From contig CM054182.1 of assembly GCA_028829895.1 (NCBI GenBank), positions 18,713,001 through 18,777,000 on the forward strand: a DNA stretch of 64,000 bases, written 5' to 3'. This DNA comes from Sinotaia quadrata (Eukaryota > Mollusca > Gastropoda > Architaenioglossa > Viviparidae). The stretch's first letter is position 1. Every line of letters begins with the position of its first letter. The position numbers and the translations under genes were made by a program. Positions 257 to 62,606 of this stretch are shown here, piece after piece. Under the pieces are notes generated by a model that did no database searches, was not told where the DNA came from, and saw nothing but the letters and a program-made list of their open reading frames with translations.

Positions 257-3200
257 CTGAAAGTGAGGTAAGAATCGATAAACTAAATGTATACAATTAA
301 TGTTTTCTGTTATTCCTCCGTATTTATTTTATAATATAACAATTTTATGTAAATACCGCAGTGAAATAGTGATTTAATTGAAATGTGTGTTTTAAGACAT
401 TTGTTTTTGTGTTACTCCCTAGTGAGAAAAAATGTTATCTCATATCATAATGAATGAAAGGGGAGAGAATTTAAAATGCAATTTAGTATTTTACAAAAAT
501 AGAAAGCGTCCGTATTTAACAATTTGTAGTTGTTATTAAAAGCGATAGTACTTGTTTTACCTTTATATATTATATGAAAATGACACTGTTTCTTATACAA
601 ATTCATTAGTACTTGTTTTATCTATATATATTATATGAAAATGACAGTTTCTTATACAAATTCATTAGTACTTGTTTTATCTATATATATTATATGAAAA
701 TGACACTGTTTCTTATACAAATTCATTAGTACTTGTTTTATCTATATATATTATATGAAAATGACAGTTTCTTATACAAATTCATTAGTACTTGTTTTAT
801 CTATATATATTATATGAAAATGACAGTTTCTTATACAAATTCATATTTACTTGTTTTACCTATAAATATCATATCAAAATGACACGGTTTCTTATACAAA
901 TTCATATTTACTAGTTTTACCTATATATATTATATGAAAATGACACTGTTTCTTATACAAATTCATATTTACTTGTTTTACCTATATATATTATATGAAA
1001 ATGACACTGTTTCTTATACAAATTCATATTTACTAGTTTTACCTATATATATTATATGAAAATGACACTGTTTCTTATACAAATTCATTAGTACTTGTTT
1101 TACCTATAGAAAATGACACTGTTTCTTATACAAATTCATTAGTACTTGTTTTACTTATATATATATAAATGACACTATTTCTTATCAAATTCATATTTGC
1201 TATGCCCATTCTTAGTTTTTAAATAAGAGGCGCCTGAAAAAGACCCACCTGCTTCGAAAACAGATCTTTGAGTTTCTGGAAAGGATAAGACTAAAAGACC
1301 CACATTTAGGGAAAACAGTTCTTTAAGTTTCTGGAAAAGACAAGCCTAAAAGACCCACCTTTTGGGAAAACAGTTCTTTAAGTTTCTGGAAAAGACAAGC
1401 CTAAAAGACCCACCTTTTGGGAAAACAGTTCTTTAAGTTTCTGGAAAAGACAAGCCTAAAAGACTATATTCATACACTATTTTAAAACAGTTCTTTAAGT
1501 TTCCGGAAAAGACAAGCCTAAAAGACCCACCTGCTTCGAAAGCAGTTCTTTGCACAAACTGTACAGCGTGATGAACTTGCGAGCCAGCAGGCGAGCTTCA
1601 AGAAAACCCTCAGCCACCAACATGATCTCACAAATCAAGGCAAAGTCTGGCACTACCATAGCACATGGTCTGCAATTATGATACCAGCTTGAAACGAGCA
1701 AGATCAAGTGATGAGTATGAAAAAAACATTGCCTGATGATACTGACAATACCTCGTGAGGACCAGCTCTTCACATTAGTTCTTAATATCATTAAATAATG
1801 TAGAAAAGCGAAACCATGTATTCCAGATCAGATAATGCCCAGTCATGATGTATAACTGCTATCAAAACATACACACACACACACACACACACACACACAC
1901 ACACACACTGTGACGATGTGTGACAAATTCTGTGTCATGACCTCGTGACCCAATTGCTCGTTTCAAAATTAAATTTTTGAACAGACCTTTGTTGAAATTC
2001 ACCCGTGATACATCAGTATCGAGAGAAGCTTTCTAGCAAGGTCGGATTGTTGCATAACTTTAGGCCAGTGTCCAGCACCTTCGAGATCAACAACATACCA
2101 CGTGAACGGTCACGTGATGCGTTCAATGCAGTTTCATAAAATACGATCATAAGGCGCAAAATCCCTCACTCACTCCCAGACCGGCAGACATACAAGGCAG
2201 CTTTAACATTAGCTCCGTCCCGCCGCCATACCAGAGTCGTAAGAGAGTCGAAGATGAACCCGCGCTAGAGCAGTAAAATCTACTTTGAAGAGCCGGGTTC
2301 TTCTTATGTTATTCCTCTCTACCTTCGTGCTTCTTGAGTCGTACACCGACTCGGGCGTCTTCATGACCCATACGTAAAAGTACATCGTGTTAACTACGGT
2401 TAACGATCGTCGCAAGTACATTAGCGATGCAGTAATTGAGTGGACATTGACTGTTATGCTATGCGGTACTGACGATGAGCCAAAGGATGTGGACCAGTTC
2501 TAACCAGTTGAACCCCACATGCGACCAAGAGTGTAGTTAAGTATATCTACTAGGGTCCAGAATCAAGTGACTATTTGGCAACAGAAAAGCAAATTCTCGT
2601 TAGAACTTTTAACCAGGACGGTAAATGAGAGAACAACGCTGTGTAGAATTAAGACGTCGTGTCGTAATTAATCGTTGCTGTTAATTGTTAAACTTATTAA
2701 ATCTATTTCATTTTGTTAAGAACCTCTTTTGTAGTAACTTTGTATGCATATAGACCAAAATGCGGATTGGATGGGGGCTGTCTGAGCTAAACGAATGAGG
2801 TAATGAATGCATATGAATCTAAGAGAGTTTTTAACGATTTCCAATCTAGCTAATGTACGCAAATTATCAGTTTCGTAAATCTGTGATCTAGACTACAAAG
2901 ATGCATTTTAATTTAGTCGAATGATGATTTGAGCAACCAGTCTGTTTAGGTTAAACGAGAGGGAATTAATTTAAATAGTAAATTAAAGTTCTATAATTTC
3001 CTAAGCAGGGTCTTTAAATAAATACTGGAAACGTAACAAGTGGTGCCTCGTCATGGGATTGATATGTATTAAATTGTAACATTTTTTATACATAGGGCGT
3101 ATCATAAACCTAGAAACAAACGAACATCTGAGAATTGCCAATATTCTATTGATTCAGGATTGTTGAAATATTTATCTTGCTTTTGTTGTGACATGTGCAT

Positions 3201-62606: not shown

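What the first reader, a model, noticed from the sequence alone, without database searches (positions are those of the whole stretch)
1228..62606. Dynein introns filled by minisatellites seeded from exon-intron junctions
At seven exons of one gene (1, 11, 16, 18, 21, 23, 24), and weakly at exons 2 and 4, the tandem or dispersed repeats in the adjoining intron are copies of that exon's own edge: last (or first) coding bases, splice site and nearby intron. Exons 16, 18 and 21 have them on both sides. Each array has its own unit (44, 46, 48, 50, 55, 82 bp), so these are independent events, not one spreading family. This points to a recurrent process in which a junction segment is tandemly duplicated and then amplified, with the exon-proximal copy held by selection. 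It would expand introns while multiplying splice sites. Ordinary intronic minisatellites in this window (15295, 24060, 54185) show that arrays also form without exon sequence, so enrichment must be tested. Satellite-swollen introns are known for Drosophila Y-linked axonemal dynein genes, but exon-edge units of this sort are not something I know to be described.
Basis: partly seen in the sequence, partly recalled or inferred. Interest (0 to 1): 0.92.

Follow-up and report, generated by a model that had tools for sequence, protein, structure and literature searches.

The report
Exon-edge minisatellites in mollusc dynein introns
Several introns of a mollusc dynein gene are filled with short tandem repeats whose unit includes the edge of the neighbouring exon and often its splice site; the repeats are real and of a kind already described in amphioxus and human genes, and across the genes sampled they are no more frequent at exon edges than randomly placed repeats would be, so no special junction-copying process is needed.

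Summary
The repeats are real. The window holds 24 exons (minus strand) of an outer-arm-type axonemal dynein heavy chain (best match DNAH17). Exon-edge sequence recurs in the adjoining intron at exons 1, 16 (both sides), 18 (5' side), 21 (both sides, 5' weaker), 23 and 24, perhaps 2; exon 11 only as a distant copy; exon 4 not.

The window's genome is held (984 Mb, chromosome-scale). Haemocyanin genes mark it as a mollusc. The same structures occur in other dynein genes and in myosin genes, including a two-copy 97-bp duplication with 5-bp microhomology that a paralogue lacks.

The proposed junction-seeded process is not supported. Random intron points are boundaries of a local repeat family at about 4.5-8% by the same detection. 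Real exon edges: 7/40 here, but 2/82 in other dynein genes and 2/30 in myosins; pooled 11/152 against about 8.4 expected. Frequent minisatellite birth in introns, seen at exon edges because duplications reaching a short way into an exon are tolerated, suffices. The window alone is about 3-fold up.

The kind is known: 'mirages' of amphioxus, and boundary minisatellites in human segmental duplications. New, as far as searched, are the mollusc setting and an intron with about 50 retained decoy donors.

The parts
62373..62606 (-). exon 1 of the window (DNAH17 residues from ~350)
62139..62355 (-). array, ~55-bp unit, carries a diverged copy of the last ~14 exonic bases of exon 1 and the start of its intron
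   Evidence: TRF; P 0.005 and 0.010; no copy reached the score of the donor scan
59124..59458 (-). array region with weak copies of the exon 2 3' edge
   Evidence: E 3e-4 and 0.002; P 0.010 but 0.234, so weak
36888..36964 (-). dispersed 77-bp copy (92%) of the exon 11 3' edge (52 exonic + 25 intronic bp), in intron 14
   Evidence: E 4e-22
36967..37586 (-). 39-bp array in intron 14, unit taken from intron sequence after the exon 14 donor, no exonic bases
34701..34946 (-). exon 16
34166..34717 (-). 44-bp array over the exon 16 donor; 17 exonic bp per unit; 11 of 11 scanned copies keep the donor at full score
34979..35025 (-). copy of the exon 16 5' edge, beside the 50-bp array 35054-35252
   Evidence: (score 18)
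31660..32036 (-). 48-bp array before exon 18 (31437-31655), unit holds up to 38 bp of the exon start; acceptor AG kept in 1 of 8 scanned copies
18500..18792 (-). exon 21
15858..18524 (-). 46-bp array over the exon 21 donor (main block 16387-18524, diverged copies below), 25 exonic bp per unit; 50 of 52 scanned copies keep GT, 15 score at least as high as the real donor
18845..18986 (-). weak copies of the exon 21 5' edge
10539..10568 (-). dispersed copy (29 of 30) of the exon 22 5' edge, in intron 23
   Evidence: E 2e-6
10835..10973 (-). 47-bp array over the exon 23 donor (exon 10960-11222), 14 exonic bp; the one scanned copy has lost GT
1238..1551 (-). 55-bp array over the exon 24 donor (exon 1531-1669), 21 exonic bp; 4 of 4 scanned copies keep GT

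Best explanation
This mollusc genome forms minisatellites at high density in introns (55 merged arrays of period 15 or more, 16.6 kb of the 64-kb window). A short segment is tandemly duplicated, probably at a few bases of microhomology, and some duplications are later amplified. Where the founder segment happens to straddle an exon-intron junction, the repeats carry the exon edge and the splice site. Such a duplication is tolerated because the copy at the exon still splices the normal way, whereas duplications wholly inside an exon change the protein and are removed. The exon edge stays recognisable because the real exon is under selection. Shown: the copies, their concentration at exon edges, recurrence in other genes, a two-copy stage, and a frequency no higher than random placement when genes are pooled. 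Inferred: replication slippage or template switching as the duplicating step, removal of exon-internal duplications by selection, and normal use of the exon-proximal splice site.
For: Edge 40-mers copied at 10 of 154 edges, reverse complements 0 of 154; interior 40-mers 4 of 361, reverse complements 8 of 361. Array boundaries are as frequent at random intron points as at exon edges once genes are pooled. TRF placement: window 3 seen, 1.48 expected; other dynein genes 4 seen, 3.77 expected. Same structures in non-dynein genes: L038 myosin acceptor array (35-bp unit, 12 exonic bp) and L043 3' edge copies, the exon border of L043 being uncertain. L021: 97-bp tandem duplicate with TCTGA at both breakpoints (read from the sequence), not in paralogue L019.
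Against: The window by itself has about three times the expected number (7/40; P 0.005, 0.023 with the conditional control; at score 17, 4/40 against 1.8, P 0.10). Exon borders in the other genes were set from Pfam hits and splice-site scores, not from transcripts, and the edge sample is small: the pooled ratio is 1.32 with a 95% range of 0.67-2.29, so a modest enrichment is not excluded. The other dynein genes lie below expectation (2/82), which neutrality alone does not predict. In the exon 21 array the exonic columns are less variable between copies than the intronic ones (1 of 25 against 8 of 21, P 0.007), which plain neutrality does not explain; exon 16 and L027 show no such difference. 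Two dispersed edge copies (exons 11 and 22) are not tandem and need a second step.
Confidence: 0.75

Rival explanations
1. Junction-seeded process: exon-intron borders are hot spots for tandem duplication, for instance through paused polymerase, R-loops or stalled replication at splice sites, and the duplicates are then amplified.
For: Window edges 7/40 against 2.2-2.9 expected.
Against: Other dynein genes 2/82 against 4.7-6.3 expected; myosins 2/30 against 1.5; TRF placement 4 against 3.8 outside the window.
Confidence: 0.15
2. Splice-site arrays are kept because they do something: redundant donors buffer mutation, or AG|GT units act as dual-specific sites so that extra copies are removed from RNA, as described for human polyubiquitin (PMC10809524).
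For: Donor copies keep GT in 65 of 68 scanned copies at exons 16, 21, 23, 24. In the exon 21 array the exonic part of 45 copies hardly varies (1 of 25 columns against 8 of 21 intronic). L027 has a 45-bp unit, each copy CAG|GTAAGT, in frame and without a stop as read from the sequence.
Against: Recent amplification alone preserves the sites: in the exon 16 array and in L027 intronic columns are as constant as exonic ones. At exon 18 the acceptor AG is kept in only 1 of 8 copies. The constancy of the exonic part at exon 21 could also come from gene conversion with the exon. No transcript data.
Confidence: 0.07
3. Assembly artefact: collapsed or wrongly expanded repeats.
For: No reads could be examined.
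Against: Assembly of 984 Mb in 26 contigs; many different units at many loci; graded divergence between copies within arrays, for instance 69-100% at exon 21.
Confidence: 0.03

Closest known systems
[quoted passage not shown] the 2002 Adh3 paper itself is not held)
   Same: Tandem units that span an exon-intron boundary, at donors or acceptors, many copies with AG/GT signals; several genes in one genome; units of tens to over 100 bp.
   Different: A mollusc here; copy numbers up to about 50; edge frequency compared with a random-placement control; splicing and length polymorphism not examined here.
Internal tandem repeats (minisatellites) at exon-intron boundaries of human genes in segmental duplications (PMC2812944, passages read)
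   Same: Minisatellites (units about 30 bp on average) that reach over an exon-intron boundary; 27 intron modifications after inspection in that paper.
   Different: There the repeats change exons or form new introns, with transcript support; here they lie in the introns next to an exon edge and no change of the transcript is known.
Intron gain by tandem duplication of an AGGT-containing or junction segment (Rogers model; potato RdRp case, PMC4974935, passages read)
   Same: Tandem duplication that carries splice signals; in potato the duplicate spans an intron end and the next exon's start.
   Different: No new intron is evident: in the pair L019/L021 the intron exists with and without the duplication.
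Satellite-filled giant introns of Drosophila Y-linked dynein genes kl-3, kl-5 (PMC6508621, search listing and start of abstract only)
   Same: Axonemal dynein gene with repeat-rich introns.
   Different: Introns of the window are about 0.2-9 kb, the repeats are many minisatellites with different units, and myosin genes have them too.
Dual-specific splice sites in tandem repeats, human UBC (PMC10809524, abstract and passages read)
   Same: Tandem units each with an AG|GT site; L027 unit in frame.
   Different: There the repeats are coding and use is shown from RNA; here use of internal copies is unknown.

Membership tests
amphioxus-type 'mirage' minisatellites | tandem repeat unit spans an exon-intron boundary | tested here: met
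   exons 16, 18, 21, 24 (and 23 with one full copy) and loci L021, L027; L038 read from the sequence
amphioxus-type 'mirage' minisatellites | both donor and acceptor boundaries can be affected | tested here: met
   donors at exons 16, 21, 23, 24; acceptors at exons 16, 18, 21
amphioxus-type 'mirage' minisatellites | many repeats keep AG/GT splice signals | tested here: met
   65 of 68 donor copies keep GT at four exons (0 of 1 at exon 23); acceptor AG kept in 1 of 8 at exon 18; no copies reached the scan score at exons 1 and 2 (donor) and 16, 20, 21 (acceptor)
amphioxus-type 'mirage' minisatellites | regular splicing not disturbed | not testable with these tools
   no transcripts held
amphioxus-type 'mirage' minisatellites | length instability between haplotypes | not testable with these tools
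   one assembly only; paralogue L019 lacks the L021 duplication
amphioxus-type 'mirage' minisatellites | host is a cephalochordate (taxon in which the name was coined; hardly a defining trait) | tested here: not met
   33 matches over the cut-off to Haemocyan_bet_s PF14830, a mollusc haemocyanin domain by recall; genome 984 Mb, largest contig seen 156 Mb
Rogers-type intron gain | a new intron is created between the duplicated copies | tested here: not met
   L019/L021 share the intron with and without duplication; not tested for the window's own introns
DNAH9/11/17-type axonemal dynein heavy chain | end-to-end alignment with DNAH17/DNAH9, better than with other dyneins in the PDB | tested here: met
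   2096 and 2049 bits against 1110 for the next

The most novel reading that the evidence does not exclude
In this dynein gene, or in a class of long genes like it, exon borders really are preferred birthplaces of minisatellites, and the resulting runs of near-identical donors (about 50 at exon 21, or six in-frame CAG|GTAAGT units in L027) are used in RNA as alternative or dual-specific sites, or are kept in step with the exon by gene conversion, giving variable exon ends and a route to new exons and introns.
Probability: 0.1. Interest if true: 0.75.

Novelty: new member of a known kind. Interest (0 to 1): 0.37.

Why it matters
It adds a mollusc genome to the few reports of exon-border minisatellites and suggests that they follow simply from a high birth rate of tandem duplications in introns. 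Introns with dozens of equal donors in a row are natural experiments on how the spliceosome picks the exon-proximal site, and nascent cases such as L021 let the duplication step be read directly. Such repeats may also mislead gene prediction.

Tried and rejected
Tried: intron gain as the source of the arrays (rejected for the one pair that could be tested, L019/L021). Paralogue comparison L033/L034 gave no alignable stretch. Literature terms 'mirror minisatellite' gave nothing; the right word is 'mirages'. Rfam found no RNA family in the window. The abalone TSSK1 and earthworm metallothionein papers report intronic minisatellites, not exon-edge units, in the passages read. I could not name the species or class. 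No test was made of whether different arrays are related to each other beyond their different TRF units.

Rows dropped before the counts: introns under 400 bp (3 of 23 in the window, 13 of 54 in other dynein genes); exon 1's upstream and exon 24's downstream introns (incomplete; exon 24 3' is a positive that is therefore not among the 7/40); dynein introns whose two splice sites could not both be set, which leaves out positives seen (the L027 exon ending at 14092) and the L014 array, whose exon border is ambiguous: with the border that array is wholly intronic. L016_0 (score 22) and L013_0 (found only by a 40-mer 40 bp inside the exon) are in introns under 400 bp. L038 has only 12 exonic bp and falls under the threshold; L036, counted as a myosin positive (score 15), showed no copy by blastn. 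Adding the four dynein cases would make the other dynein genes about 6/86 against 7.7%, still not enriched (my arithmetic, no call). At scores 15 and 17 the window is 5/40 and 4/40, the other dynein genes 2/82.

Full report
What was checked. The gene lies on the minus strand. Open-frame pieces read, joined to 1659 residues, match DNAH17 (residues 350-2015, 2096 bits) and DNAH9 (2049 bits) end to end. Splice sites were set by frame, splice score and alignment to DNAH17 for 22 of 23 introns and by eye for exons 4/5 and the outer ends. The result is 24 exons and a 4998-bp frame without a stop. The exon 17 donor is set as a GC site and is uncertain.

The repeats. TRF gives 110 rows, merging to 55 arrays of period 15 or more that cover 16,614 bp. 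Exons with 40-bp flanks searched against the window find exonic copies at exon ends: strong at 16 3', 18 5', 21 3', 23 3', 24 3', dispersed copies of the 11 3' and 22 5' edges, weak ones at 2 3' and 21 5'; the two remaining hits, at exons 8 and 10, are weak, on the other strand and far away. Junction scans add 1 3' and 16 5'. Exon 4 and the 3' side of exon 18 are not supported. Edge 40-mers recur in the adjoining intron at 7 of 46 window edges and 3 of 108 edges in other dynein genes; reverse complements 0 of 154; interior 40-mers 4 of 361, reverse complements 8 of 361.

Same genome, other genes. The genome is held: 984,265,383 bp in 26 contigs, the window being C6:18713001-18777000. Of 80 dynein AAA_6 exons in 15 places examined (rough exon borders), copies that reach an edge with E below 1e-6 were seen at L013, L014, L016, L021 and L027; in L016 one further hit lay inside an exon, and the L014 border is ambiguous. 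L027 has about six 45-bp units, each CAG|GTAAGT, 35 exonic and 10 intronic bases. L021 has two 97-bp copies at 98%, with TCTGA at the breakpoints, and the paralogue L019 (91% identical over 196 bp) has one. Among 10 myosin exons with 1.5-kb flanks, L038 and L043 show edge arrays and L040 has an array reaching the acceptor; the L043 border is uncertain.

Is it more than chance? Three controls were run. (a) Placing the TRF arrays at random within their own introns: window 3 seen, 1.48 expected, P 0.18; other dynein genes 4 seen, 3.77 expected, P 0.54 (exon borders there are the rougher set). (b) Treating intron points as junctions with the same detection, a point is a family boundary in 5.4% (window) and 5.6-5.9% (others); real edges 7/40 and 2/82; myosins 2/30 against 4.5-5.2%. 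Pooled 11/152 against 8.4, P 0.22, ratio 1.32 (0.67-2.29); without the window 4/112 against 6.2 (the pooled rate of 5.5% was set by me from these figures). (c) Conditioning on 40-mers 40, 80, 120 and 160 bp further on not being repeated: 7.2% and 7.7%; window 7/40, P 0.023; others 2/82, P 0.99; at score 17 the window is 4/40 against 1.8, P 0.10. The window was picked for its edge repeats, and the excess does not repeat in 112 other edges.

Splice sites in the copies. Donor GT is kept in 11/11 (exon 16), 50/52 (exon 21), 0/1 (exon 23), 4/4 (exon 24) scanned copies; the acceptor AG in 1/8 at exon 18; at exons 1 and 2 (donor) and 16, 20, 21 (acceptor) no copy reached the scan score. The exon 21 intron thus holds about 50 decoy donors, 15 of them scoring at least as high as the real one. 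Across 45 of its copies 1 of 25 exonic columns varies against 8 of 21 intronic columns (P 0.007); in the exon 16 array (6 copies) and L027 (5 copies) there is no such difference. This could reflect selection on the copies or conversion with the exon, or one array's history; I leave it open. Whether any decoy is used is unknown.

The organism. Thirty-three matches to the haemocyanin beta-sandwich family PF14830, all on C2, mark a mollusc; that the family is mollusc-specific is recalled, and the 14 control genomes without a match say little about this. Contigs C1, C2, C3, C5, C6 and C7 are 98-156 Mb, unlike amphioxus (recalled as about 0.5 Gb in some 19 chromosomes).

What is known. [quoted passage not shown] PMC3902484 passages; the original Adh3 paper not held). 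Minisatellites at exon-intron boundaries, with effects on splicing, are reported from human genes in segmental duplications (PMC2812944 passages), and a two-copy junction duplication from potato (PMC4974935 passages). I found no report from a mollusc in searches of one open-access library, which misses most subscription journals; of the listings I opened only the papers cited.

Verdict. Real, recurrent, of a known kind, and explained without a special junction-directed process.

Noticed in passing
window 1909-8466: Very young LTR-type element: two 1130-bp direct repeats (1909-3038 and 7337-8466) 100% identical, ends TG...CA, inserted in an AC microsatellite of intron 23; the 998-residue frame inside (3652-6648, +) has no Pfam match at E 0.01.
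   Followed up: partly
window 27094-29160 (-): Ty3-like polyprotein frame in which integrase C-terminal matches (within residues 135-179) precede the reverse transcriptase (314-474) and RNase H; this order recalls Gmr1-like elements (from memory).
   Followed up: no
L027+L028, donor at 14092: Six or so 45-bp units, each CAG|GTAAGT, in frame and without a stop as read from the sequence; use of later donors would repeat a P-loop-like peptide.
   Followed up: partly
window 16387-18524: In the 46-bp array the exonic columns are nearly invariant between copies while a third of the intronic columns vary; not seen in the exon 16 array.
   Followed up: partly
window 32456: The exon 17 donor fits best as a GC-AG site with a poor context (TTCAAG|GCCAGT); may be a mis-set border.
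   Followed up: no
G000:C6:65635096-65638030: Three successive myosin-head hits to the same profile positions (about 120-152), perhaps mutually exclusive muscle-myosin exons.
   Followed up: no
window 48752-49351 (+): Transposase-looking open frame by eye (hAT-like, from memory); no Pfam match at E 0.01.
   Followed up: partly
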